Position numbers and translations under genes: made by a program. From the IMG/VR virus record IMGVR_UViG_3300049846_000338, positions 1-27,745 of that record: a stretch of 27,745 nucleotides of DNA, one strand, 5' to 3'. Source of the stretch: a virus. Below, piece after piece: positions 8,728 to 27,745 of the stretch; positions within the stretch are counted from its first letter, which is position 1; the number at the start of each line of letters is the position of its first letter. The notes under the pieces were generated by a model, which worked only from the letters and a program-made list of their open reading frames with translations, made no database searches and was not told the DNA's origin.

Positions 8728-10794
8728 TTAAACCTTCCCTATAATATTTCCGTAAATAGTATATCCAGTGATGATGTCGGGACCGTTGGCATCGTTAGTT
8801 TCAATCCTTATCTTAAACTGTTTTCCCTTCCATCGCAAAGGCAGCTTCTTATCAAGAATTCTCGTTCCGCCAACAGGAGATGTCCCCACTTTAGCAAATC
8901 CCACCTGACCAACGCCTTCAGCCGTTACGCTTACAGTATCTGAGGCAATTTCCGAGAAGTCGCCAACAACTGATAGAGTGTACGTAACTGGGCTTCCGGC
9001 CTCGAATTGCACTCTTACATAATGACCCGACTTAAGCTGAGTTGATTGTTTAGGCTCATTCATAGTAAGCCATCCACTCTCAATAATTGTATTGATGTTA
9101 TCGCCATCATCGCTATAAGACCCGGTATCAAACTTATAGACCTTGCCGCCTGCACCAGCGCATATAAAGTCGCCATTCCGTCTTACAAGATAGCACTTTT
9201 GTTGAGCTAATTTTGTGGTAAATTTAGACCAAGATCCGTATGTAGACCCTGTTACCTGACCGGCGGAATAGAATGGTGTGTAGTTATAGTTATAGATAAC
9301 GTCACCAACCTTGCACATTAACCAGTTTCTTCTTGGATAATGGATAACCTGTATCTCATCAGCGTCTGTTAATTTTGAGGAGATTTGGCTTGCAAGCTCT
9401 GACTTTATAGCTTCAGAGATGTTTGCGGTCTGGAATGTCAGGCTGTCTGCGCCTGCAGCAAAGTTCCTTGCCCCATCATTGCTGACGAAAATCATGGATC
9501 CGCCGATGCTCTTTAGTCCAAACCTAGATACTCCGCCTTGGGGAAACAGGCCGACTGGATTGAAGCTGATAGAAGCAGCCGTGGTGTCTTGAATGGAGTC
9601 AATACCGTCATCTGCATATACGTTACGCTCTCCATTGGCAACAAGGTACTTCTGGAACGTATCCAAGCTAAGAAGCCTCTCCGCTTGAGGCTGTCTAGCG
9701 CCGTAGTCTTGCGATATGGCATTAAGCGTGCGCTGGAATGTAGTCATGTCCTGTGGGTCATTGGGACCACTGATCCTGACCTTGGTGGGCGTTCTGGCAT
9801 CAATATAATATGCCCTGCTGAAGTGAGTATGCGCCCATGAGGAGATCGGCATGGCCGACTTGAAGAACTGTAGACTGTCGTTCGCAGTTTGCCCAGTAAT
9901 TGAAGTTCCTGTCAGTTGCGCTGTTGTAACTGCGCTGACCTGAGCAATAGCTGATCTTGTCGTGTTATAATAGTAATCTCCTACTCTTATCTCTGTGTTG
10001 AGCCAATTAACGCCAGACACAGCAACGCCAGCAGCAGAAGTTCCAGTTGTCCCGATTGCAAAATTGTCATACCCGTTGTTTTGAGGAATGATATTTAGTT
10101 CTACCAAGTCAACTATCTGGTAAAAGTCTCCACCAACCTGATTGGCTGAAGCTGAAATCGTAGGGTGTCCAAGCCCAGTAGCAGCACTACCTATAGCTGT
10201 ATGCTGTATGTTCGTAGAGCCAACGCTCGTAATAACCGCATATCCACCTATTGATGAGTTATAGACAAGATCGTTATTAGTCACGAAAGTCTCTGACAGC
10301 CAGTTCTCTACGGAGCTATCTGACAGACCTGCGGCGCTGGTGGATGTGCTAGACGATTGGCCGCGAACCATAAGAGCCTTAAGCTCGTTGAAGGATGTTC
10401 CGCCGTTATCAGTATAGAAGTTCCTGTCAGATCCGTTAACGAATATTAACTTATCGCCCATCTGCATAGATAACAGTCTCTTTGAGGAATCCTTCCCAGT
10501 AAGTATCTGCGACCATGTTTCCGTGGTTTCATTATATTTATATATTGTTCCGTTGGAAGAGGCCATCAGGGTAGCAGTTCCGTCCTCGTCAACATACTCA
10601 TGCAGGCCAGTTATCTCATTTGAGCCGGCAAGACCGCCGAGCCGAGTTAAGCCCTGAATCTTTTCTGCGTTTCCATTGATATTGATGAACCTGTTTACAA
10701 GCCTGCTAGAATATTCAATAGGTATCTCTGAGTCGGCGAACTCTGTCGTCAACCCATATCTACCCGGAGCATATTTAGTTTGGACTGTTGTCAT
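8728..10794 (-). CDS. Tail nozzle / packaged-DNA stabilisation-like protein
   Basis: This 688-residue protein is beta-rich. The N-terminus reads SSRLVNRFININGNAEKIQG, then GLTRLGG, and a little later GLHEYVDEDG. The pattern of a 'VNR...N..GNAEKRPG' opening followed by propeller-like strands with FVNGSDRNFYTD and GGKVYKFDT is typical of podovirus nozzle proteins of the P22 gp10 and T7 gp12 kind. P22 gp10 is shorter (472 residues) and T7 gp12 longer (794). It lies directly after the head-tail adaptor gene, with a 4-base ATGA overlap, exactly where a nozzle gene is expected. In the virion it would form the tube that closes the tail. The assignment is by pattern and position and is fairly secure. 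Confidence 0.7.
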   Translation of the reverse strand: MTTVQTKYAPGRYGLTTEFADSEIPIEYSSRLVNRFININGNAEKIQGLTRLGGLAGSNEITGLHEYVDEDGTATLMASSNGTIYKYNETTETWSQILTGKDSSKRLLSMQMGDKLIFVNGSDRNFYTDNGGTSFNELKALMVRGQSSSTSTSAAGLSDSSVENWLSETFVTNNDLVYNSSIGGYAVITSVGSTNIQHTAIGSAATGLGHPTISASANQVGGDFYQIVDLVELNIIPQNNGYDNFAIGTTGTSAAGVAVSGVNWLNTEIRVGDYYYNTTRSAIAQVSAVTTAQLTGTSITGQTANDSLQFFKSAMPISSWAHTHFSRAYYIDARTPTKVRISGPNDPQDMTTFQRTLNAISQDYGARQPQAERLLSLDTFQKYLVANGERNVYADDGIDSIQDTTAASISFNPVGLFPQGGVSRFGLKSIGGSMIFVSNDGARNFAAGADSLTFQTANISEAIKSELASQISSKLTDADEIQVIHYPRRNWLMCKVGDVIYNYNYTPFYSAGQVTGSTYGSWSKFTTKLAQQKCYLVRRNGDFICAGAGGKVYKFDTGSYSDDGDNINTIIESGWLTMNEPKQSTQLKSGHYVRVQFEAGSPVTYTLSVVGDFSEIASDTVSVTAEGVGQVGFAKVGTSPVGGTRILDKKLPLRWKGKQFKIRIETNDANGPDIITGYTIYGNIIGKV

Positions 10795-17776: not shown

Positions 17777-19928
17777 CTAAAACTCCATTGATTTGACCAA
17801 AAAATACACCTAAGTGTTGAGCGCGATGTCTAAGTAGATTGGAAATCAACTCTTCTTTTTGCTCCGATGACATTGACTGCACAAGGCGCTTAATACCGGG
17901 ATCTCCGCCAGTACCGAGTTTGCCAACCTTGTTATCCTGCCCAAGAACGGAAGGTTTCTTCGGATCTTCACCCTCAAGAGGAATCTCCATAGCCTCGCCC
18001 TGATCCAAGAATGACGAGATAAACTTATCAATCATCTGGATATGTTTAACGTGGTCTTGATCAGGGAACACATCAAACAACGGACGTTTATCAGGTGGCA
18101 TAATGTAATATGCGTTCTCAAGGTTTTGATCGTCAATTCTAGCGGGTTCAGGAACGCTAGGTTGAGGAAGAACTTCATCAATATTCTCCACATCAAGAGC
18201 CTCAAGATACCTACGCCCTGCCAAGTATAGAGATTTAGGGTTTTGCGCCGTTAACGGGAACTGCAGGACGAAATCAACCTCAGCCTGCGCTTTTGCGAGC
18301 TTTTGAGAGCGAGTAGCATACTTAGGATCAAAGATAGGGACAATTCTAAAGTCATCCTGATAGTCCTCTCTAGTGACAGTTATTTGTTGATCACCGTCAA
18401 AGAAATATTCCTCTGACTGCATATATTTAGCGTTCAGCCTAAATACCTTATGGAGTTCTTCCTCCATAGATACGGCCATAAACTCCTGCACGCTGCTATA
18501 TAGCTGAAGTCCCTGCTCAAGCATGGAAAGCAAAGCCTGCGGTTGGTACACCTTGTCAGGCTGGCCTGCTAGGATGTCGCTATTGTTTGCAACCCTCTGG
18601 GCAACGCCCTGCAGGTACTCAATAGCCTGTTGAATTGCAGGATCTGGGCCGCGAAAATCAAGCTTCATAAAGTGCTTTTGAATATCAGCCACATTTCGCG
18701 GGATCTTGATACCCTTGCCCATAACGAGTTGGAAATCATCTCCAGGAATACCAAGAGCGTCAGAGATAAGATATGTAAGGTTTCCAACAGTAGAAAGCTC
18801 ACCAGCATCAATAAACATGCGGGTTAGTTTGTTCAGAGCAAAGTTAATTTTAGCCAGTAGGAACCCAAATCCAAACCCATAGAAGCCATCAGGGTTCGGC
18901 AAGAACTGATAGTGAGTGAAGTGCTCAATAGGCTCTTTACCCTTTGTCGGGTTGCCCATCTCGTCAACCTCATACCGGACCTGAATACGAAGGGTTTTCC
19001 TAGCCTGAGCGTCTACCCATACAATGTACGGCTCAGATATACCGTCCTCGTCAAGATCAAGCAGGCAATGCTGCTCAAGAATAAGCGCTCCTTTTGTGCT
19101 CTCGCTTGAGATGTCGGAGTCAGATACGCCCTGCTGCTCATCAACAACTTCTTGAGCCTCACCAATGTCCTCATGACCAGTATACGGCTCTGCAGGACTA
19201 ATGAAATAACCCATTTTATGAAGGATCTTGGTGTTATTGACAGAGACGAACTTTACGTGCGTCTTTCTCTCTAACTCTTCAATGGAGATTTGTCCTACAT
19301 GGTACGGAACAACAAGATCTTGCGCCCTAACTCGCTCGATAACTACCCGACGCTTCATATGATCGAAATACGTCTTGGTAAAGTCTGACCCATGAAGCCC
19401 ACAGGCCATAAACATCTGGTTTTTGTTGCGCTTGTACGTGCGATCAACTACACCAAGCTGGAAGTTCATATGCGCGGCAATTCTCTCTCCGCGCTCTCTA
19501 GCATCCTGAGAAGACTTGCCTACAGGAATAGCCTCTACAAAATACCTATTAGGGAAGAACGCCTTATATGTTCTGCTTTGGAACTGGTTAACAGCCTCTG
19601 TCAGCAGCGGGATAGACTCATTGCTCGACCCATCCCAAGGCGGATTCTCAGCCATATCGCTCTGGTAGAAAAGACGAAGATAGTCTGCGTTCTTCTCTTC
19701 CCAGTCAGACCTGCTGGTAAGATCATCCTTATAGTTTTTGATTACATCGTTCGCAATTTCCTGAAGCTCATCTTCTTCAAGGTCTTCTGCGAGGTTAGTT
19801 TCCTCTATAGGAAGCTGCGGCCCTTGTGGGGCAGGAGGCAGCACTTCTTGATCTTCTAACGGAATCTCTATTATCTCGTTAGGATATTCACTGTTTTCTA
19901 GAAAGTTCGCTTCCTCTGGTAACTGCAT
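17637..19928 (-). CDS. Portal protein (P22-like, large type)
   Basis: This 763-residue protein would form the ring through which DNA enters and leaves the capsid. A disordered acidic N-terminus (1-60) is followed by NYKDDLTSRSDWEEKNADYL, then PPWDGSSNESIPLLTEAVNQ and FQSRTYKAFFPNRYFVEAIP, the pattern of the P22-type portal core. HYQFLPNPDGFYGFGFGFLL, NKLTRMFIDAGELSTVGN and GVAQRVANNSDILAGQPDK are the characteristic stem and clip helices. The C-terminus (from about 690) is Pro/Gly/Asn-rich and overlaps the next gene. It starts 41 bases inside the end of the glycosyltransferase fusion gene, with GGAAGAG upstream. The assignment rests on these patterns plus its place before scaffold and capsid. 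Confidence 0.85.
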   Translation of the reverse strand: MQLPEEANFLENSEYPNEIIEIPLEDQEVLPPAPQGPQLPIEETNLAEDLEEDELQEIANDVIKNYKDDLTSRSDWEEKNADYLRLFYQSDMAENPPWDGSSNESIPLLTEAVNQFQSRTYKAFFPNRYFVEAIPVGKSSQDARERGERIAAHMNFQLGVVDRTYKRNKNQMFMACGLHGSDFTKTYFDHMKRRVVIERVRAQDLVVPYHVGQISIEELERKTHVKFVSVNNTKILHKMGYFISPAEPYTGHEDIGEAQEVVDEQQGVSDSDISSESTKGALILEQHCLLDLDEDGISEPYIVWVDAQARKTLRIQVRYEVDEMGNPTKGKEPIEHFTHYQFLPNPDGFYGFGFGFLLAKINFALNKLTRMFIDAGELSTVGNLTYLISDALGIPGDDFQLVMGKGIKIPRNVADIQKHFMKLDFRGPDPAIQQAIEYLQGVAQRVANNSDILAGQPDKVYQPQALLSMLEQGLQLYSSVQEFMAVSMEEELHKVFRLNAKYMQSEEYFFDGDQQITVTREDYQDDFRIVPIFDPKYATRSQKLAKAQAEVDFVLQFPLTAQNPKSLYLAGRRYLEALDVENIDEVLPQPSVPEPARIDDQNLENAYYIMPPDKRPLFDVFPDQDHVKHIQMIDKFISSFLDQGEAMEIPLEGEDPKKPSVLGQDNKVGKLGTGGDPGIKRLVQSMSSEQKEELISNLLRHRAQHLGVFFGQINGVLDEHGNPIQPNSPVAGQGPNGPVAAEPSNSGDMELLMQALQSPYGTA

Positions 19929-21588
19929 TTACATACTCTTCCAATGTTGGGGTTCCAGCTCGCATCTTCTCCAAGTTATCATTATACTCTTTCTGCCACA
20001 TTTTAAAAAGTCGATGGTGCTTGTATAGCCATCCAGCCATACCGTCTCCATAGATATTGATGTTAAGATCTGGCCTAGACTTATAAAGATCCTTCAGCTC
20101 GTTACTCTGCGCCAAGAACTGCCCTTCTGTCCAAAACGTGCGAGTAATGTACTTACCCTTGTACGTGTTTGTCCCAATAGTCAATTCCATATACTTTGGT
20201 TGCCCATCCGAGTTCTTTTCATTCATGTCTGGCTTCGCGTGGTGACATAGATCATATCCGAAAAGATGGAACTTGCTATACCCAAACATATCTGAGAATA
20301 GGCCAATGCTTCTGGTTGATGTTGCTGACCCACCAGAAACCGGAAGATCGGCGCAATTCATAAGGTCAGTCTCACCAGCGTTAACGTATGCGTGATAGCC
20401 AATTACCTTGCACTTGTTATCGTTAAGGGTACTTACAACGCTTGGATCGCACATGCTAGCTACAAAGTACACAGGGTCAGTGTCAGGCGACTTAACAAAT
20501 CCCTCTACGTGTCCTCTTGGGTCTAGCAGCACAACAGCCCAAGGCTTGATGCCGTGGATCTTTAAGGTTTCTATAGCGTGTTTGACCGCAATAACCTTAG
20601 CTCCGTTATCTTGAAGCGCCTTGATCTCATCAATATGGTTAGATAGTGAAGGTCCCGCCGCACATATAACAACCTCTCCGTCTGGATTCCTTTTGCACAA
20701 ATTTACCCAAGATCTGATCTGGCTAAGGTTAGCGGATACGTTCGCCTTAATTTTATCATGATCCAGGCAATTTCTTGTCTTGATCTTAATATCTGAAGAG
20801 TCAACTACTCCGTTACCCTGCTGTTGCTGCATGTCCTTAATCTTTCCCCTGTTTTCTGCGGCTTGAAACTTCCTATTTCCCTTCCGGTGTGCCATTTTCT
20901 CAGCCAATTTCGTCTTAGGCCACACATCAATATCAGTAAGCTCCTTAACATAGAAAGGAGCAAGATTTTTAGTGGGCAATCCAACGATACAATGATCGAG
21001 AACGTGGCAATCGGTCCATCCGCCAGGATAAGATTTGAATGAGTCGTTAATATACTCGTTCTTCATCTTCAGCAGAAGATCATACCCTCCTGCTTTGAGG
21101 TTATATGCTACAAATCCGCACTCACTGTAGAAGTTCTTTCTGCCAAGATAGCTGACTACTTCATCTCCGGTTGGCAGAACTTCCCTTAGCCAGTCCAGCG
21201 TAATAGGCTTCTTAGTGATAACGTCAGCATCAAGCCAGATAAGATAATCGTATTCATCCTTAACAGCCTCAGCACACCTCTCAAGAGCGAAGATCTTATG
21301 TGAGAACTTTACAACATCATCAAGATATGATTTAGGCTTATGATCTTTCCATCTCTCGATGAATTGCTTTTGCTCATCTTCAAACGTTCTGGCAATGAAT
21401 GATCTTTCCTCTCCAACTATATCTATAATATGGTTGTTTAGAGTGACGAAAGATTCTCTCGGCTGCTCGTCTAACTGAATATAGATCTTAATGTCTTCAG
21501 GCCAATATTGATGGAATGATGCAAGCATTTCTGCTGCACATACCTCAAAGTGGTTATTGGGAAAGGTGGTGCATACGGCTATTTTCAT
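19888..21588 (-). CDS. Fusion of GT-A glycosyltransferase and DUF115/Maf-like domain
   Basis: This is a 566-residue two-domain protein. Residues 1 to about 240 look like a GT-A glycosyltransferase: KIAVCTTF at the start, then YDYLIWLDADV with a DxD metal motif at 120-122, CGFVAYNL, and WTDCHVLDHC. Residues about 300-540 match DUF115 (MptE-like / motility accessory factor family): VVICAAGPSLS at 307-317, VIAVKHAIETL, PWAVVLLDP, PVSGGSATST and FHLFGYDL. Maf proteins of this family transfer nonulosonic acids to flagellin; archaeal MptE is a pterin kinase. The fusion suggests a bifunctional sugar transferase, perhaps acting on protein. It is ATGA-coupled to gmd upstream and overlaps the portal gene by 41 bases. 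The acceptor is unknown. Confidence 0.8.
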   Translation of the reverse strand: MKIAVCTTFPNNHFEVCAAEMLASFHQYWPEDIKIYIQLDEQPRESFVTLNNHIIDIVGEERSFIARTFEDEQKQFIERWKDHKPKSYLDDVVKFSHKIFALERCAEAVKDEYDYLIWLDADVITKKPITLDWLREVLPTGDEVVSYLGRKNFYSECGFVAYNLKAGGYDLLLKMKNEYINDSFKSYPGGWTDCHVLDHCIVGLPTKNLAPFYVKELTDIDVWPKTKLAEKMAHRKGNRKFQAAENRGKIKDMQQQQGNGVVDSSDIKIKTRNCLDHDKIKANVSANLSQIRSWVNLCKRNPDGEVVICAAGPSLSNHIDEIKALQDNGAKVIAVKHAIETLKIHGIKPWAVVLLDPRGHVEGFVKSPDTDPVYFVASMCDPSVVSTLNDNKCKVIGYHAYVNAGETDLMNCADLPVSGGSATSTRSIGLFSDMFGYSKFHLFGYDLCHHAKPDMNEKNSDGQPKYMELTIGTNTYKGKYITRTFWTEGQFLAQSNELKDLYKSRPDLNINIYGDGMAGWLYKHHRLFKMWQKEYNDNLEKMRAGTPTLEEYVNAVTRGSELSRKQ

Positions 21589-22592
21589 CTTGTCACCATC
21601 ATATTAACAAGTTCTCTGAAACCAACCTTAGGTTTCCACCCAAGAACTGAATTGATCTTTGAAAAGTCTCCTCTGAGATAGTTAAGATCGTTAGGTCTAT
21701 AGAAATTGCTATCAACCTCCATAACCAACGTATCTCCTACATATCCTTTTTCTTCGGCTCCTGATCCTTCAAACCTTATTTCCAATTTATATACTTTAAA
21801 CGCTTCCTGAAGGAACTCTCTAACGCTATGCACTTCTCCTGTAGCCACGATAAAATCATCCGGCTTATCATGTTGGAGCATCATCCACATGGCTTCTACA
21901 TAGTCACCGGCGTACCCCCAGTCACGTTTGCTATCAATGTTCCCTAATTTAATAGGAGACATATCTCTTTTATTCCCGCCTAAAATACCAGTGATAAGTC
22001 TATTTACTCCATTGGTGATCTTTTTCGTCACAAAGTCTGGATGCCGCAATGGTGACTCATGATTGAACAAAATGCCGTTGCTTACGAACTGGTCGGCCTC
22101 ATGCCTAGCGTTCACGCCAGCCCAGTGAGAGGCAACCTTGGCTACCGCATATGGAGACTTGGGCTGGAAAGGAACGTATTCTCCTGTAATTGATGCTGAG
22201 GCGTATCCGAACATCTCACTGGTTCCAGCTTGATAGATTCTTGCATTTGGTACGATCTGCCGAGCCGCCAGAAGCACATTCAAAAATCCGGTATAGTTAA
22301 CTTCGCATGTCATTTTCGGGCATTTAAAGCTATATCCGACATGAGACTGTGCAGCGAGATTGTATATTTCATCTGGATTGCTGACTTTAATGGCCATAGA
22401 TACTGCTGACTCGTCAGTAATATCTCCCTCAATAATCGTCACCTTTCCGAGAATATCCAGATATTTATGGTTCTCCATAGATGTTCTCTGTTTGGTAAGA
22501 CCATAAACATTATATCCCTTATCAAGCAAAAACTTAGCTAGATAGCTACCATCCTGACCGGCAACGCCTGTGATTAATGCTGACTTCATCAT
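21585..22592 (-). CDS. gmd: GDP-mannose 4,6-dehydratase
   Basis: This 335-residue protein is a short-chain dehydrogenase/reductase of the extended type, converting GDP-mannose to GDP-4-keto-6-deoxymannose, the precursor of GDP-rhamnose, GDP-fucose and related sugars. ITGVAGQDGSYLAKFLLDKG (7-26) carries the GxxGxxG NADP site. NLAAQSHVGYSF, GTSEMFG with catalytic Thr124 and Glu126, and SPYAVAKV with Tyr148 and Lys152 complete the active site. FNHESP and DWGYAGDYVEAMWMMLQ are signature segments of Gmd. The length is slightly below the usual 340-375. All catalytic residues seem intact. It is ATGA-coupled to both neighbours. No fcl (epimerase/reductase) gene follows, so the keto sugar must be used by another enzyme or by the host. 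Confidence 0.93.
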   Translation of the reverse strand: MMKSALITGVAGQDGSYLAKFLLDKGYNVYGLTKQRTSMENHKYLDILGKVTIIEGDITDESAVSMAIKVSNPDEIYNLAAQSHVGYSFKCPKMTCEVNYTGFLNVLLAARQIVPNARIYQAGTSEMFGYASASITGEYVPFQPKSPYAVAKVASHWAGVNARHEADQFVSNGILFNHESPLRHPDFVTKKITNGVNRLITGILGGNKRDMSPIKLGNIDSKRDWGYAGDYVEAMWMMLQHDKPDDFIVATGEVHSVREFLQEAFKVYKLEIRFEGSGAEEKGYVGDTLVMEVDSNFYRPNDLNYLRGDFSKINSVLGWKPKVGFRELVNMMVTR

Positions 22593-23359
22593 ATATTCCT
22601 ATAGTTAACTACGCACATATCCGCTGCAGGGTTTTGAGGCTCTTTGTTCATCTCTTTATAAGCCCTCCACCAATCATCTGCAAACATGCAGTCCTGATAG
22701 TCTCTGAACCAAGGACCGCCCTCAGAGTAGTGGATTACTTTTGGGTTAACATTTCCTGGGCTTGATCCATCAATCCAGTTAAATGATGCCGGAAGATCAC
22801 CTATCTCATTATCTTTAAGCCAAGAGAATGTATGCAGGAAGTTACCAGTCGCTGTATTCACCATCTCTTTTGTGAGGAATTTATTAGATGGATGACTGCA
22901 GTTGATAAGCATAAAGCTAGACCAGTTCTTCCTGAAATACCCCTGCTGAGGAGATCCGTCCATCTTAAGGCTCTTACTTACCTTTTGCCTGTGCTTCACG
23001 CACATCACGGCGTACCTATCATCTGCGTGCTGGAATATCTCCTTAACATCACATTTGAATAGCATGTCGCAATCAAGAAAAAGCGCCCAGCCTTTAAAAC
23101 CCATTAACTCTGGTACAAGAAATCTTGAGTGGCTAAACTCAGTGCTAAACGGCTTGCCATCCAGCATATCAATCCTGTTGCCGGTCAGCGCCTCAACAAA
23201 CCAAGGTCTTTGGAAAAACCCCTGTTTCCTAAGTTCCTTGTGATATAGGGGAATGACCCTGACATGGCCAGATTTGTACCTATCCAGAGAGAACTTGCAC
23301 ACGTCATATGCAACCTTTTCCCTATCATCCCACCCAATAAACACCCTTAGTTCAGACAT
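22589..23359 (-). CDS. GT8-like glycosyltransferase
   Basis: This is a 256-residue single-domain GT-A protein. It starts LRVFIGWDDREKVAYDVCKF, typical of family 8-like phage and bacterial transferases. FSHSRFLVPELMGFKGWALF is followed by LDCDML with the DxD motif at residues 96-98. The C-terminal part has NPKVIHYSEGGPWF, matching the H..G..KPW motif that closes the GT8 active site. No membrane segment or signal is present, so it acts in the cytoplasm with a nucleotide sugar donor. It overlaps the upstream gene by 13 bases and gmd by 4. Donor and acceptor cannot be read from the sequence. Confidence 0.82.
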   Translation of the reverse strand: MSELRVFIGWDDREKVAYDVCKFSLDRYKSGHVRVIPLYHKELRKQGFFQRPWFVEALTGNRIDMLDGKPFSTEFSHSRFLVPELMGFKGWALFLDCDMLFKCDVKEIFQHADDRYAVMCVKHRQKVSKSLKMDGSPQQGYFRKNWSSFMLINCSHPSNKFLTKEMVNTATGNFLHTFSWLKDNEIGDLPASFNWIDGSSPGNVNPKVIHYSEGGPWFRDYQDCMFADDWWRAYKEMNKEPQNPAADMCVVNYRNI

Positions 23360-24054
23360 GCAACTCCCCTATCTTTTATCTCTTCTAAAGTGAATTGTTT
23401 AGGCTCGTAGAACTTCCTTATTTCTTCGTACTTGTAGTACGGAACAACGCTATCGAATAGTTCTGAGTTTCTTACGATCCCATGAGTTGTATATACACCC
23501 TTGCCCATCTCTATCGCTTTCATGACGCCCATGCTATTGAACGCCAGAACAGCATCGCACCACTCAAGTTGCTCATCCAAAGAGTGAGAACCAGCTTCCT
23601 TCTCCCTGATAACCAGTGTATGACCTAACTTCTTTGAAACAGACCTCCAATAGATAATCCAGTCTTCAGGTATCATATCGTTCATGAACGCTGTATACGG
23701 AGTTGGTGGCATCACAAGAATGTTCATAGGCCCTACAGATCTTGTGAACGGCTGAACATTAATAGGTTCTATCATCTGGTTTTTCACCACACGATATTTA
23801 CCTGTCATCTCTTTAAATCCGTCTTTATCTCTATATTCCGCCTCAAAGTACCCGTTATCTACATACCAGAAATCAACACCCATCATCTTCTGGTATCTCA
23901 TAGCAATACCCGATCCACGAAGTATGCCATAGAAAATGCTATTAACATCTTTGTTCTTACTAAAGTTATTTATATGAGATGTTTGAACTCCTGATAGTGC
24001 AAAAGCCCTCATCACTCCCTGGCTTACGCTATTATCTGTGTAGTAGCCTAACAT
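23347..24054 (-). CDS. Capsule-type (GT-B-like) glycosyltransferase, putative
   Basis: I place the start at ATG 24054 (MLGYYTDNSVSQGVMRAFAL, 235 residues). A longer frame begins only with TTG at 24081 and overlaps the preceding gene by 34 bases. The protein lacks DxD-type GT-A features. ILRGSGIAMRYQKMMGVDFW, then YVDNGYF, and near the end WCDAVLAFNSMGVMKAIEMG with KGVYTTHG recall capsule polysaccharide synthesis/export transferases of the KpsS/KpsC kind, where an 'S..G..A...GkPV' loop binds the nucleotide. This is moderate evidence. It sits between a mannose isomerase and a GT8-like gene, so a sugar-transfer role is consistent. Confidence 0.55.
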   Translation of the reverse strand: MLGYYTDNSVSQGVMRAFALSGVQTSHINNFSKNKDVNSIFYGILRGSGIAMRYQKMMGVDFWYVDNGYFEAEYRDKDGFKEMTGKYRVVKNQMIEPINVQPFTRSVGPMNILVMPPTPYTAFMNDMIPEDWIIYWRSVSKKLGHTLVIREKEAGSHSLDEQLEWCDAVLAFNSMGVMKAIEMGKGVYTTHGIVRNSELFDSVVPYYKYEEIRKFYEPKQFTLEEIKDRGVACLN

Positions 24055-24380
24055 TTTCTCTCTATATCGCTTTCTACGCAATGCCCGGTTTGTATCTCAA
24101 GAACCAACGTGCGATTTAAGGCCGTATATTTATGCCAGTAACCAACAGGAACAGTAAAACAGTCCCCACTAGAAACCTCTCCGCCGTCACCAGAAGATAG
24201 GTCTGGAGAGTAGGTCATGAACCAACCATTTCCGAACATAAACAGCCACAGCTCGCTTCTCTTAAAGTGCCTTTGCTTTGATAGCTGGCTTCCCTTGCGA
24301 AAATAGAGAAATTTAATCTTGAAGCCGCTTGCGCTCCAAATAGTTAAATACCATCCCCATTTCCGCTTAGAAAATTCCAT
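24048..24380 (-). CDS. Stand-alone cupin mannose-6-phosphate isomerase (ManC C-terminal type)
   Basis: This 110-residue cupin matches the C-terminal isomerase domain of bifunctional ManC/AlgA proteins. KWGWYLTI (7-14) matches 'PWGWY'. KQRHFKRSELWLFMFGNG (35-52) is the 'lSlQ.H..R.EhW.vv.G' metal-binding motif, with Gln36, His38 and Glu43 kept. FTVPVGYWHKYTALN supplies the last His (83). LVLEIQTGHCVESDIER (92-108) is the 'iEvQ.G....EdDI.R' signature. It interconverts fructose-6-phosphate and mannose-6-phosphate. The N-terminal guanylyltransferase domain of ManC is absent. Its ATG shares one base with the stop of the 42-residue gene (TAATG). It is normal in length for a lone cupin. Confidence 0.83.
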   Translation of the reverse strand: MEFSKRKWGWYLTIWSASGFKIKFLYFRKGSQLSKQRHFKRSELWLFMFGNGWFMTYSPDLSSGDGGEVSSGDCFTVPVGYWHKYTALNRTLVLEIQTGHCVESDIERKC

Positions 24381-24508
24381 TATTTCTTCTTTACGCCCTT
24401 AATAGTACCTTTGCGCTCACTAGCATAAAAAACTTGTTCTCCTTTTTTCTTACCGTACTGCTTAACCATAGATTTTTTGATTTTAGTCCCCTTTTTAGTT
24501 AGTGGCAT
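24380..24508 (-). CDS. Small Lys-rich conserved phage protein (42 aa)
   Basis: This short gene encodes a 42-residue protein that begins MPLTKKGTKIKKSMVKQYGK and ends KGTIKGVKKK, about one third lysine. The pattern 'MPLTKKG.KI..SM..QYG.KKGE.VFYAS.NKG.I.GV' is a small protein I recognise from many phages, often near terminase and portal genes. It has a strong ribosome binding site (AAGGAG, 7 bases before the ATG), overlaps the end of the preceding gene by 14 bases and shares a base with the next start (TAATG). No function is known to me. The charge suggests nucleic-acid binding or a packaging role, which is inference. Confidence 0.85.
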   Translation of the reverse strand: MPLTKKGTKIKKSMVKQYGKKKGEQVFYASERKGTIKGVKKK

Positions 24509-24797
24509 TAGTTTTCTCCTTTATATCCGAGTTGTTTATTACCCATTCACACACCGGAATATAGTTATTGTTAAGTGGTGAGAATGAGTATTTAGTAGAG
24601 AGTTTTCCGTCTTTAATTTTAACCAGTCCGTCATTTAAAGCCTTTGTCACCATGTCAGACTTATAGTACTCTTTGTTTTTTCTCAGGTAACTTCTGCAAA
24701 TAGAAAATTCAACCATATCAATAATAATATCATTGAACTTCTCAGCTATGTCTGGTGAATTAACAATTACGTCTATTTCCCCAAAGCATGTTTTCAT
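24495..24797 (-). CDS. Small hypothetical protein
   Basis: This is a 100-residue protein. I choose the ATG at 24797, which shares a base with the TGA of the upstream nucleotidyltransferase gene (TGATG), instead of the TTG one codon earlier. It looks like a compact alpha/beta domain (MKTCFGEIDVIVNSPDIAEK, then DIIIDMVEFSICRSYLRKN), with a Tyr/Asn/Ser-rich end. I do not recognise it. It lies inside the sugar cassette and overlaps the next gene by 14 bases, which carries that gene's ribosome binding site. Confidence 0.65.
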   Translation of the reverse strand: MKTCFGEIDVIVNSPDIAEKFNDIIIDMVEFSICRSYLRKNKEYYKSDMVTKALNDGLVKIKDGKLSTKYSFSPLNNNYIPVCEWVINNSDIKEKTNATN

Positions 24798-25246
24798 CAA
24801 GCAATTCCCGCATTAGCCAACTTTGCCTGCACAGCCTTATCTACAAGCCTGCTGCTGGCCTGAACCTTGTCATCTCCGCCTATCTCCCAAAGCATTGTTA
24901 TTCCCAGACCTTCGCAAAGTTCTTGTTCTGGAGTGTTCTCTTTCGTCCTGTCTCCGCCCTTTGCGAAGTAGTCAGGCATAATATCTTTCAATGCCTTGCA
25001 AACCGTACCGTCAGCGTCATCAACAGGAACAACAGTTTTAACTCCAGAGATAGCCCTAATGATCTCAGCGCGCTCTTCATATTTCATGAATACAAAACCC
25101 TTCTTGCGCTTAAGCCAGTCATCTGAGTTAAGAATGACCACTAAATCCCCATACATTGCCGCGTGTTTAATATACCTCACATGACCAGCATGTATCGGAT
25201 CAAACCCACCAGAAACACATACCAATGGCGTCCTGTACTTAGACAT
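24797..25246 (-). CDS. RfaE/HldE C-domain-like nucleotidyltransferase
   Basis: This is a 149-residue protein of the HxGH cytidylyltransferase superfamily. GGFDPIHAGH (13-22) holds the nucleotide-binding HxGH. VVILNSDDWLKRKKG is the NSD..lkr.KG segment of the RfaE C-terminal domain, YEERAEIIRAI follows, PDYFAKGGDR (91-100) is the KGGD motif, and SSRLV (131-135) stands at the ISSS position. HldE adds AMP to heptose-1-phosphate; relatives use CTP or other substrates. I start at ATG 25246, which has GGAGGAG and AAGG upstream and begins just before the domain. The longer frame uses TTG at 25288 and overlaps the methyltransferase. In this cassette it could activate a sugar phosphate, but the nucleotide and sugar are not known. 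Confidence 0.8.
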   Translation of the reverse strand: MSKYRTPLVCVSGGFDPIHAGHVRYIKHAAMYGDLVVILNSDDWLKRKKGFVFMKYEERAEIIRAISGVKTVVPVDDADGTVCKALKDIMPDYFAKGGDRTKENTPEQELCEGLGITMLWEIGGDDKVQASSRLVDKAVQAKLANAGIA

Positions 25247-25271: not shown

Positions 25272-25838
25272 TCAATCTTGAACACCAAAAACCTGCGCCA
25301 TCATTGTGATGCCGCCGTCTTTAACTTTTCCGCCTACCGGTAGAACAACGGCTCCAGGAAGATCATCTACGATCTTGTTGCAGCCATAGAGTGAGGTATC
25401 TGGGCATTTACCTTCATTGTCTGGGAGGTAGTAATCATCAAATATTACCACTGAGCTTCCCTTGCATTTCTCATAGTCGTTCTTGATTGTCTCTACGCTA
25501 TGACCGCCATCAATGTATGCCAAGTCTGCAACCACTGGGTTCAGCGTCTTACGCGTGTCACCCTTGATGAGATGCACCTCTACATTAGGACATTGATGCT
25601 TGATGAATGTCTCTACGTCTGCGACTTTATAGTGATCCTTTACGTTAAGCTCCTCTTTGTCAGTCTGGTCTGACGCATCTTCAAAAAGGTCGTATCCGAT
25701 ATATTTGACGTTCTTGCGCCATCTGGACGCGTGCTTGATCATTCGGACAGCGTTCTGCCCGTTCCATGTTCCAATCTCTACAATGCTCTCTGGTTTATAA
25801 AGGTCGATAACATGGAGTAGCTGGTCATATCTGGTCAT
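25272..25838 (-). CDS. Class I SAM-dependent methyltransferase
   Basis: This 188-residue protein belongs to the Methyltransf_24 / CmcI-like group. SIVEIGTWNGQNAVRMIK (18-35) holds the SAM-binding E.G...G motif. YIGYDLFEDA (46-55) supplies the acidic residue at the end of strand two. LIKGDTRKTL and AYIDGGHSVETIKNDYEKC are hallmarks of this group, whose IDGxH residues bind a metal or substrate, and VVIFDDYY follows. Such enzymes often O-methylate sugars or small hydroxylated molecules. It starts at ATG 25838 after AGGGGA, 8 bases below the phosphomannomutase stop. Its location among sugar genes suggests sugar methylation, which is inference. Confidence 0.82.
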   Translation of the reverse strand: MTRYDQLLHVIDLYKPESIVEIGTWNGQNAVRMIKHASRWRKNVKYIGYDLFEDASDQTDKEELNVKDHYKVADVETFIKHQCPNVEVHLIKGDTRKTLNPVVADLAYIDGGHSVETIKNDYEKCKGSSVVIFDDYYLPDNEGKCPDTSLYGCNKIVDDLPGAVVLPVGGKVKDGGITMMAQVFGVQD

Positions 25839-25846
25839 AAAATCCC

Positions 25847-26620
25847 CTATCTACTGAGTAAGTACTCTATGACCTCCAGCGTATGATCGACTCCAGAAAC
25901 CTTCAACGAAACATTTTTGGGACAAGCGTCACTTATTCTCTTGACAGGATAATCATTCCCTCCTTCTTCCATCTTGTCTCCCAGGAAGATGAACTCTTTT
26001 CCTCTATCAAGAATGTACTGTGCTGCGCGTGATTTATCTGCGCCTTTGCTGAAGATGTCTATGCTAACTGCCCCTCCTTTCGCAACATCCACCCCCGGCC
26101 ATATGACCTTCAACGCTGCAATTGTGTCGTCTCTCCATGATGCATCGTGCTCTTGACGTACCGTATAAGGTGCATACCGACCAATCCTGCTGAAATTAAG
26201 CATCCTTGGTGAGCGCCACTCTATCCTGTTACCGTAGTGGTCAGGATAATCCTTAAGCATGTAATGAAGCGTTCTCTCTATCTGTGGAGGAAGCGGTGGA
26301 GTTACATCATCCTTCCACATGAGCTTTCCGCGCATTGTGCGAAGGTCATCTCCATTGTTGCAGAACACACCCATAAAATGAGCGATAGGACCATTGAGAA
26401 TATCAACGGTCTTTACGTAGTTGTTACCTGTTACGAAATAAACTTGATAATGCCTTGAGAGCCTGTGCAGAGCGCCCTGCATTGTGTCACTGACTGGAGT
26501 TTGCGGCTCACATATAACTCCATCTATATCTAGCAATATAACTTTATTACGAGTATCTACCGACTTTAGAGACTCCTCCACGCCTGTCTGCGTCGAAGGC
26601 TTTCCTTCTTGAAGACTCAT
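25847..26620 (-). CDS. HAD-type phosphomannomutase (eukaryotic PMM family-like)
   Basis: This is a 257-residue HAD enzyme. ILLDIDGVI (28-36) carries the Asp31/Asp33 nucleophile and acid pair. YFVTGNNYVK (61-70) is motif II. MLNFSRIGR (140-148) corresponds to the 'mlNvSpiGR' signature of eukaryotic PMM. GGAVSIDIFSKGADKSRA (182-199) matches GG.iS.DVF..G.DK, and FLGDKMEEGGNDYP (212-225) matches 'FfGDk...GGNDyei'. PMM interconverts mannose-6-phosphate and mannose-1-phosphate; the length is that of PMM (about 250). The ATG at 26620 has GAGGGG upstream and overlaps the terminase gene by 74 bases. An HAD sugar phosphatase of the same superfamily is the main alternative. Most bacteria use the unrelated ManB type. 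Confidence 0.8.
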   Translation of the reverse strand: MSLQEGKPSTQTGVEESLKSVDTRNKVILLDIDGVICEPQTPVSDTMQGALHRLSRHYQVYFVTGNNYVKTVDILNGPIAHFMGVFCNNGDDLRTMRGKLMWKDDVTPPLPPQIERTLHYMLKDYPDHYGNRIEWRSPRMLNFSRIGRYAPYTVRQEHDASWRDDTIAALKVIWPGVDVAKGGAVSIDIFSKGADKSRAAQYILDRGKEFIFLGDKMEEGGNDYPVKRISDACPKNVSLKVSGVDHTLEVIEYLLSR

Positions 26621-27745
26621 ATTTCCCCTCTTCCCGTTTACTGGCAGTCCATGTTACCGGACGAGAAACAAGGGCATATGACACCTCATCATATACGTGA
26701 TCTTCTTGGCGTGTATCCGGCCCCTTCTCAGGTTGCCTCTCATCCAATTGTAATTCTGGGACAGTTCTCCAAAAATGCAAGCAGTTTTCAGTGACATAGA
26801 ACCCAGGCTCCCCCTCGCCTGCTGCGATCCTGCGTCTGACCTCAAGGTAGTTGGCGGCTCTGTCCTTGAGTGACTGCTCCATAACTACGCCGTTACTGGC
26901 GAAGTTCTCAGCTACGCTTGGGCCATCATGCTCCGCCCACATAGCCGAGTCGCCTATCCTGTAGTCTATATACTCAGCTGTATCTTTAGAACTCTCTCGC
27001 TCTATAGTGTCGAGCATGTTTTTACCTGCATCAATATCCGGGATAATATCCTCGATACCTAGCTCTATAGCTCTTATCTTCTGCGCGACCTGCCAGCTTT
27101 CCTGCCTGCAGCCTTCGTCCGGTTTACCGTTCCATCCATACATCTCTCTGTATCTGATAATGGAGTTCTTTGGTATAACCACATCCTCGTAAGATCCCTT
27201 GCCTTTGAGGACAACATCCTCATCCGGCACGCAATACCACCCAACGCTGTATGGTTTGGCTGTTCCCCAGTCCACGCTGATATATTTAGTCCAGTGCTTC
27301 ATAGGAGTGAAAGATCTTATCATATGTCTATTTCTCGAAATCTTCTCAAATGCAGCTCCAGCTACAATATCCCAGTTGCCTTCCTTCATAGCTCTTACGA
27401 GGTCTGGTGAACCAAGACCATCCAGCTTTTTAAAGTAGTCTGGATCGTTCTGCATTAATGTAGGGTTATCTGCCAATTTAGCTGGAATGAACTGTCTTCT
27501 CATACCTCCTTCTTCTGGAGGCATGTCTCGTATCTCGTCCGGCTTTGTTCCATCAATAAAGCATCTCTTAACCCAAGTGTGTCCGATGCCTCCGGGGTTT
27601 GTGGCCGAGACAATGCCCGGCAGCTTCTTGGCCCATTGTTCTTTGACCTTAAGGCCGCCCAAGCGAACCCGCGATCGCAAGTACCGATATTGGTACTCTG
27701 TGAAGTGAGTTAGCTCGTCCAATAGTAATAGATGAAGCTCTGCGC
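26547..27745 (-). CDS. terL: Terminase large subunit, 5' end outside the window
   Basis: The open frame continues through the right edge; the visible part is about 399 codons. Just before the apparent TTG start at 27722 the frame reads LLLLDE, so the Walker B motif with its catalytic Glu is present (LLLLDELTHFTEYQYRYLRS) and the Walker A part lies outside. SATNPGGIGHTWVKRCFIDG contains the coupling-motif region (ATNPGG). The RNase H-like nuclease follows: YISVDWGTAKPYSVGWY with the first Asp, DIIPDIDAGKNML, then RIGDSAMWAEHDGPSVAENF, and DHVYDEVSYALV with the last acidic residues. TerL cuts concatemeric DNA and pumps it into the head. The C-terminal end (EGKYESSRRKAFDADRRGG) overlaps the next gene by 74 bases. 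Confidence 0.93.
   Translation of the reverse strand, partial: AELHLLLLDELTHFTEYQYRYLRSRVRLGGLKVKEQWAKKLPGIVSATNPGGIGHTWVKRCFIDGTKPDEIRDMPPEEGGMRRQFIPAKLADNPTLMQNDPDYFKKLDGLGSPDLVRAMKEGNWDIVAGAAFEKISRNRHMIRSFTPMKHWTKYISVDWGTAKPYSVGWYCVPDEDVVLKGKGSYEDVVIPKNSIIRYREMYGWNGKPDEGCRQESWQVAQKIRAIELGIEDIIPDIDAGKNMLDTIERESSKDTAEYIDYRIGDSAMWAEHDGPSVAENFASNGVVMEQSLKDRAANYLEVRRRIAAGEGEPGFYVTENCLHFWRTVPELQLDERQPEKGPDTRQEDHVYDEVSYALVSRPVTWTASKREEGKYESSRRKAFDADRRGGVSKVGRYS

What the first reader, a model, noticed from the sequence alone, without database searches (positions are those of the whole stretch)
25847..26620. Eukaryotic-type (HAD) phosphomannomutase in a phage
The MLNFSRIGR, GGAVSIDIF..GADK and GDKMEEGGNDYP blocks follow the PMM1/PMM2 pattern and not the bacterial ManB/AlgC type. 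The Pro of NVSPIGR is replaced by Arg, and the DxD motif reads DIDGVI where DVDGT is usual, so specificity may have shifted. A PMM of this fold next to a mannose-6-phosphate isomerase in a viral genome is unusual.
Basis: partly seen in the sequence, partly recalled or inferred. Interest (0 to 1): 0.6.

Follow-up and report, generated by a model that had tools for sequence, protein, structure and literature searches.

The report
Divergent phosphomannomutase in phage sugar cassette
A bacterial virus carries an unusual, diverged copy of the enzyme that makes mannose-1-phosphate, inside a block of sugar-making genes between two of its DNA-packaging and capsid genes; the enzyme type turns out to be common but unrecognised in aquatic phages.

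Summary
The minus-strand ORF 26620-25847 (257 aa) belongs to the HAD-type phosphomannomutase family: PF03332 60.4 bits against 28.5 for the best HAD phosphatase model; AlphaFold pLDDT 91.5; the 24 best Foldseek hits are all PMMs or the related L. lactis alpha-phosphoglucomutase. Residues that catalyse the reaction and hold the sugar phosphates are kept, and it carries PMM-type IGR/R, not PGM-type IGQ/K.

The context claim fails. At least 543 relatives occur in IMG/VR, and others in Asgard archaea and bacteria, so a PMM of this fold in a phage is not rare. The Pro-to-Arg change is at a variable position. The motif-I change is real at subfamily level: only the window and a syntenic phage (L281, 43% identical) share V for T16, Q for the Arg21 clasp, N at S47, and a shortened cap loop. 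They form a third deep branch beside eukaryotic and prokaryotic/phage PMMs.

The gene opens a nine-gene sugar cassette (PMI-type cupin, HxGH nucleotidyltransferase, GDP-mannose dehydratase, glycosyltransferases) between terminase and portal. Sister phages keep most of the cassette without it. Most likely it is a mannose-6-P/mannose-1-P mutase topping up GDP-mannose for surface glycan modification. Activity is untested.

The parts
25847..26620 (-). HAD-type phosphomannomutase-family protein, 257 aa (the finding)
   Evidence: PF03332 60.4 bits; model pLDDT 91.5; PDB matches all PMM/alpha-PGM; relative L281 43% identical
25272..25838 (-). SAM methyltransferase (Methyltransf_24), 188 aa
   Evidence: PF13578 42 bits; 57% identical syntenic relative in L281
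24797..25288 (-). HxGH nucleotidyltransferase (HldE C-domain/TagD-like), 163 aa
   Evidence: PF01467 56 bits; TIGR02199 67.9 bits, below its 181.5 cut-off; N-terminal half of the nucleotidyltransferase-cupin fusion L095:5730-6497
24495..24800 (-). 101-aa ORF of unknown role
   Evidence: no Pfam or PHROG match over threshold
24048..24380 (-). PMI-type cupin (mannose-6-phosphate isomerase C-terminal family), 110 aa
   Evidence: PF01050 34.8 bits, cut-off 23.6; TIGR01479 matched only in its PMI part; homologous to the C-terminal half of the L095 fusion
23347..24081 (-). 244-aa conserved cassette protein, unknown
   Evidence: homologues in the cassettes of fetched relatives (L281, L282, L285-L290, L292/L293, L295); no family match over cut-off
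22589..23359 (-). glycosyltransferase (GT8-like), 256 aa
   Evidence: phrog_28018 222 bits; Glyco_transf_8 20.9 bits, below cut-off
21585..22592 (-). GDP-mannose 4,6-dehydratase-like, 335 aa
   Evidence: PF16363 367.9 bits; TIGR01472 gmd 352.6 bits, below its equivalog cut-off 415
19888..21588 (-). MptE/DUF115-type protein, probable glycosyltransferase or flagellin-modification-like, 566 aa
   Evidence: PF01973 71.3 bits
26547..27743 (-). large terminase, 3' part (upstream boundary of the cassette)
   Evidence: phrog_979 59 bits
17637..19928 (-). portal protein (downstream boundary of the cassette)
   Evidence: tblastn to portal / head-to-tail connecting proteins, e.g. 29% to HTVC027P

Best explanation
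[quoted passage not shown] It is an optional first gene of a phage sugar cassette. The likely path is fructose-6-P to mannose-6-P (cupin isomerase, 24048-24380), to mannose-1-P (this enzyme), to GDP-mannose (host ManC, or the cassette's HxGH nucleotidyltransferase), to GDP-4-keto-6-deoxymannose (GMD-like enzyme, 21585-22592), then transfer by the cassette glycosyltransferases to a virion or host-surface glycan. Shown by computation: family, fold, conservation of catalytic and phosphate-holding residues, conserved cassette. Inferred: the reaction, its direction, the pathway order and the biological target.
For: PF03332 60.4 vs Hydrolase_3 28.5 bits. phmmer: top PDB hits all eukaryotic PMMs at up to 64 bits; L. 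lactis alpha-PGM 35 bits. AF2 pLDDT 91.5. Foldseek ranks 1-24 all PMM or alpha-PGM, E 2e-20 to 2e-16; trehalose-6-P phosphatases follow at 3e-11. VIA Z 26.0 to PMM1, 21.8 to alpha-PGM 4bnd, 20.0 to trehalose-6-P phosphatase. Kept: D31, D33, R136, R148 (PMM2 R134), R155 (R141), S186, D188, K196 (K189), N222, D223, where R134/R141/K189 hold the two phosphates in PMM2 (PMC4263888). IGR/R instead of IGQ/K of L. lactis alpha-PGM. PMI-type cupin and GMD in the same cassette, kept in syntenic L281. In two Lokiarchaeota the cellular homologue lies divergently beside a protein that reads as a ManC-type guanylyltransferase, identified by eye from its sequence (L024, L025).
Against: No activity data. The PMM2 Arg21 clasp is Gln40 here and in L281, T16 is V, S47 is N, and a cap loop is shortened, so mutase turnover could be impaired or specificity changed. 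Sister phages L282, L283, L289, L290 keep much of the cassette without the PMM, so downstream steps do not need a phage PMM. No PF00483 guanylyltransferase in the window, its neighbour contig L342 or 15 related records, so the mannose-1-P-to-GDP-mannose step is unassigned. PMMs of this family can also act on glucose phosphates (PMC3465800).
Confidence: 0.6

Rival explanations
1. It is a sugar-phosphate phosphatase: a PMM-derived HAD-IIB enzyme that lost efficient mutase cycling when the Arg21 clasp became Gln, and hydrolyses a sugar phosphate or a hexose bisphosphate in the cassette's pathway.
For: Subfamily-level changes at T16, Arg21 and S47 and the short cap loop, all shared with L281. Human PMM1 itself hydrolyses hexose bisphosphates (PMC5736207 abstract). 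HAD-IIB phosphatases share the fold.
Against: All other phosphate-holding residues (R136, R148, R155, K196) and S186/D188 are kept, which a simple phosphatase need not keep. Structure and profile place it with PMMs well ahead of phosphatases.
Confidence: 0.2
2. It is a mutase of another sugar: alpha-phosphoglucomutase (as PgmH of Lactococcus lactis), or one serving a heptose- or other sugar-1-phosphate that the HldE-like nucleotidyltransferase activates.
For: L. lactis PgmH is a family member with PGM function (4bnd). The cassette nucleotidyltransferase is closest to heptose-1-P adenylyltransferase. T. brucei PMM has PGM activity (PMC3465800).
Against: The window has IGR and R155 where PgmH and its clade have IGQ and K. 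The tree separates the PgmH clade from it. The cassette holds PMI-type cupin and GMD-like genes, which point to mannose.
Confidence: 0.15
3. It is a passenger or decaying gene with no current enzymatic role.
For: Present in only 2 of 17 related terminase-bearing records tested; long branch.
Against: Open frame with a ribosome-binding site, syntenic 43%-identical relative with catalytic residues and subfamily motifs kept.
Confidence: 0.05

Closest known systems
Eukaryotic phosphomannomutases PMM1/PMM2 (PF03332; e.g. 6cfu, 2fue, 9hn3)
   Same: Whole fold with cap (Z 26, 228 residues, rmsd 2.4), DxD nucleophile/acid, IGR and second cap Arg, S/D sugar contacts, Lys, GGND
   Different: 24-27% identity; T16 to V, Arg21 to Gln, S47 to N, short cap loop, Pro131 to Arg; separate deep branch
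Prokaryotic and phage PMM-like HAD proteins (Lokiarchaeota L024, Flavobacteriales L023, cyanophages P-TIM68 and S-SSM7, at least 543 IMG/VR contigs; phrog_29277, unknown function)
   Same: Same family, same active-site set, often near nucleotidyltransferase or cupin genes
   Different: They keep DVDGT/DIDGT...R; most phage ones have Gly where the window has Ser186
Lactococcus lactis alpha-phosphoglucomutase (4bnd)
   Same: Bacterial HAD mutase of the PMM family
   Different: IGQ and Lys in place of IGR and Arg; lower profile and structure scores; separate clade
Bacterial ManB/AlgC phosphomannomutase and ManC/AlgA (GMP-PMI)
   Same: Would fill the same pathway steps
   Different: Non-homologous mutase fold; no PF00483 guanylyltransferase in the phage
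Chlorovirus PBCV-1 GMD A118R / GMER A295L capsid-glycan pathway
   Same: Virus-encoded GDP-mannose dehydratase for surface sugars
   Different: PBCV-1 is described as relying on host GDP-mannose (PMC9614988); here the phage also encodes isomerase- and mutase-type upstream enzymes

Membership tests
PF03332 eukaryotic-type phosphomannomutase family | Profile score above gathering cut-off and above other HAD families | tested here: met
   60.4 bits vs cut-off 22.4; Hydrolase_3 28.5
PF03332 eukaryotic-type phosphomannomutase family | Rossmann core plus PMM cap fold | tested here: met
   VIA Z 26.0 to PMM1 over 228 residues; Foldseek top 24 all family members
PF03332 eukaryotic-type phosphomannomutase family | Catalytic DxD, phosphate-holding cap Arg pair, core Lys, GGND | tested here: met
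   D31, D33, R148, R155, K196, N222, D223 present
PF03332 eukaryotic-type phosphomannomutase family | DxDGT motif I and core clasp Arg (PMM2 Arg21) | tested here: not met
   V35 and Q40; also in L281. Arg in 68 of 69 other phage and 15 of 18 prokaryotic proteins; Lys, not Arg, in L. lactis alpha-PGM, so the Arg does not define the whole family
Functional phosphomannomutase (EC 5.4.2.8) | Man-6-P/Man-1-P interconversion activated by hexose-1,6-bisphosphate | not testable with these tools
   needs enzyme assay
HAD-type alpha-phosphoglucomutase (PgmH) | IGQ and Lys in the cap, clustering with 4bnd | tested here: not met
   IGR and R155; outside the PGM group in the tree
Bacterial ManB/AlgC hexose-phosphate mutase superfamily | Match to the phosphohexomutase domain models | tested here: not met
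   only HAD-type families listed at E up to 1
HAD-IIB phosphatases (Cof, trehalose-6-P phosphatase) | Best profile or fold match to these rather than PMM | tested here: not met
   28.5 bits Pfam; NCBIfam HAD-IIB 39.0, below cut-off 41.8; Z 20.0 vs 26.0

The most novel reading that the evidence does not exclude
The phage module is a partly non-homologous rebuild of the GDP-mannose pathway: the HxGH (HldE/TagD-like) nucleotidyltransferase acts as a mannose-1-phosphate nucleotidyltransferase in place of ManC, as suggested by widespread phage fusions of it to a PMI-type cupin (the same partner that bacterial ManC/AlgA is fused to), and the Arg21-less mutase is tuned to feed it.
Probability: 0.12. 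Interest if true: 0.65.

Novelty: new variant of a known kind. Interest (0 to 1): 0.4.

Why it matters
PMM-family HAD enzymes are widespread in aquatic phages; the cyanophage matches found here are annotated 'hypothetical protein', and the matching PHROG has no function. Recognising them shows that some phages carry an upstream mannose-1-phosphate step and not only tailoring enzymes, which bears on how phages alter virion or host surfaces. The window's branch also offers a natural test of whether the Arg21 clasp is needed for mutase action in a family where human mutations cause PMM2-CDG.

Tried and rejected
(1) Pro-to-Arg as a specificity marker: rejected, the position is variable. (2) Eukaryotic gene capture: not supported, prokaryotic, Asgard and phage relatives exist and the window lies outside the eukaryotic clade. 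(3) Tight functional coupling of the nucleotidyltransferase-cupin fusion with PMM: only 3 of 40 fusion-bearing records, most of them probably fragments, also hold PF03332, so the coupling is loose. (4) Nucleotidyltransferase or cupin within 1.5 kb of the phage PMM in 27 of 50 loci with enough flank; no matched background was computed, so this is descriptive only. (5) A viral scan with the window nucleotidyltransferase alone found no relatives because of its pattern choice. (6) Searching for more members of the DIDGV..Q subfamily found only L281 and L345, which matches with the same identity, span and E-value and is probably the same sequence. (7) No PF00483 guanylyltransferase in the window, neighbour contig or relatives, 1 of 50 PMM-bearing records. 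(8) Literature: no paper in the held library joins phosphomannomutase with viral contigs or phage GDP-mannose AMGs.

Full report
What is there. The finding's coordinates hold a 257-aa ORF on the minus strand (26620 to 25847). The plus strand over the same bases is broken by stops. The start ATG has a purine-rich agaggggaaat upstream and overlaps the end of the large terminase gene by 74 nt. The quoted motifs are present. The window is an IMG/VR virus record of 27,745 bases. It holds terminase, portal, capsid-region and tail genes; the portal is 29% identical to that of Pelagibacter phage HTVC027P.

Family and fold. Pfam PF03332 scores 60.4 bits (E 3e-16, cut-off 22.4), Hydrolase_3 28.5; NCBIfam offers only HAD-IIB at 39.0, below its cut-off. 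Sequence search of the PDB ranks eukaryotic PMMs first (64 bits) and L. lactis alpha-phosphoglucomutase next (35 bits). An AlphaFold2 model from 59 aligned sequences has mean pLDDT 91.5. Its 24 best Foldseek matches are all PMMs or that alpha-PGM, followed at much weaker E-values by trehalose-6-phosphate phosphatases. VIA Z-scores are 26.0 for human PMM1 (228 residues, 2.4 A), 21.8 for alpha-PGM and 20.0 for the best phosphatase.

Residues. Against 69 other phage proteins, 18 prokaryotic ones, three eukaryotic PMMs and L. lactis alpha-PGM, the window keeps D31/D33, R136, R148, R155, S186, D188, K196, N222 and D223. In PMM2 the equivalents of R148, R155 and K196 hold the two phosphates of the bisphosphate intermediate (PMC4263888). 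Alpha-PGM has IGQ and Lys in place of IGR and Arg. Three positions depart: V35 for Thr16, Q40 for the Arg21 clasp, N66 for Ser47. A loop in the cap is also several residues shorter. The closest relative, L281 (43% identical), shares all four changes, so they define a small subfamily and not random decay.

Distribution. Isolate phages with members include Prochlorococcus phage P-TIM68, Synechococcus phage S-SSM7 and Acinetobacter phages, mostly annotated 'hypothetical protein'. A scan of genome contigs found members in Lokiarchaeota, Flavobacteriales, Rhizobiaceae and others. The 'Rhodobacteraceae Water_Bin34' contigs carry phage-like neighbours and group with phage sequences, so they are probably phage contigs in a bin. 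In two Lokiarchaeota the homologue lies divergently beside a ManC-type guanylyltransferase, recognised by eye from its sequence, which supports a PMM role for the wider group. The tree places window plus L281 (support 99), eukaryotic PMMs (100) and the prokaryotic/phage set (97) as three separate branches, all apart from the PgmH group; it is a quick tree with long branches, so relations among the three are not resolved.

Cassette. Between terminase and portal lie PMM, methyltransferase, HxGH nucleotidyltransferase, a 101-aa ORF, PMI-type cupin, a 244-aa conserved protein, a GT8-like glycosyltransferase, a GMD-like dehydratase and a DUF115-type protein. L281 has nearly the same order. L282, L283 and L289 keep the methyltransferase and much of the rest but no PMM; L290 lacks PMM and cupin; L286-L288 lack PMM and GMD (L282 and L283 are cut short by their contig ends). 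PF03332 is found in only 2 of 17 related records. In annotated isolates MW202796 and OK172329 terminase and portal are adjacent, so the interval is an accessory site. The PMM is thus an optional member of the cassette; whether it was gained here or lost in the sisters is not resolved.

Pathway reading. Cupin isomerase, PMM and GMD-like dehydratase fit a route from fructose-6-P to GDP-4-keto-6-deoxymannose. The missing step is GDP-mannose synthesis: no PF00483 enzyme is present in the window, in the neighbour contig L342 or in the relatives, and in only 1 of 50 PMM-bearing phage records. Either the host supplies it or the HxGH nucleotidyltransferase does. For the latter there is one suggestive fact: phages commonly encode a fusion of this nucleotidyltransferase with a PF01050 cupin (L095:5730-6497, PF01467 plus PF01050; many full-length relatives), the same partner that bacterial ManC/AlgA carries. 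Against it, the nucleotidyltransferase scores best to heptose-1-P adenylyltransferase, and only 3 of 40 fusion-bearing records also hold a PMM. By comparison, chlorovirus PBCV-1 encodes GMD but is described as relying on host GDP-mannose (PMC9614988). Glycosyltransferase and rfaE-type genes in pelagimyophages have been read as altering the host O-chain (PMC7029224).

Verdict. A real, well-folded, diverged phosphomannomutase-family enzyme in an accessory phage sugar cassette. Interest is moderate.

Noticed in passing
L342:9578-10092 (contig IMGVR_UViG_3300049846_001267; overlaps window 27619-27745 by exactly 127 identical bases, probably the adjoining contig of the same phage): The terminase gene is interrupted in its Walker A motif by a 33-nt in-frame gap holding a stop (TTTCCCGCCCTCTAGGTAACTAGGGGGCGGTTC, 9656-9688) that forms an 11-bp hairpin with a GUAA tetraloop. 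Hopping from GCT (9653) to GCA (9689), both Ala, gives YGGAAGAGKS as in relatives. This resembles T4 gene 60 translational bypassing (gap, stop, hairpin with stabilising tetraloop, matched codons, and a homing endonuclease gene, mobA, nearby upstream; PMC3014915). The element occurs once in the viral collection; the fold's z-score is only -1.5 against shuffles, and assembly error or a dead terminase is not excluded. Deserves its own follow-up.
   Followed up: partly
L342:8895-9578: A GIY-YIG-like endonuclease ORF (recognised by eye) directly upstream of the interrupted terminase gene; no Rfam intron match in L342 or the window.
   Followed up: partly
L095:5730-6497 and many IMG/VR contigs: Widespread phage fusion of an HxGH nucleotidyltransferase (PF01467) with a PMI-type cupin (PF01050), architecture parallel to bacterial ManC/AlgA.
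   Followed up: partly
L024, L025 (Lokiarchaeota): HAD-type PMM homologues in Asgard archaea beside a ManC-like gene; of interest for the origin of eukaryotic PMM.
   Followed up: no
L003:8028-9514: A phage PMM-like gene directly followed by what reads as a KDO-8-phosphate synthase, and another KdsA-like ORF in L095:9197-9994; some phages may pair this family with KDO synthesis.
   Followed up: no
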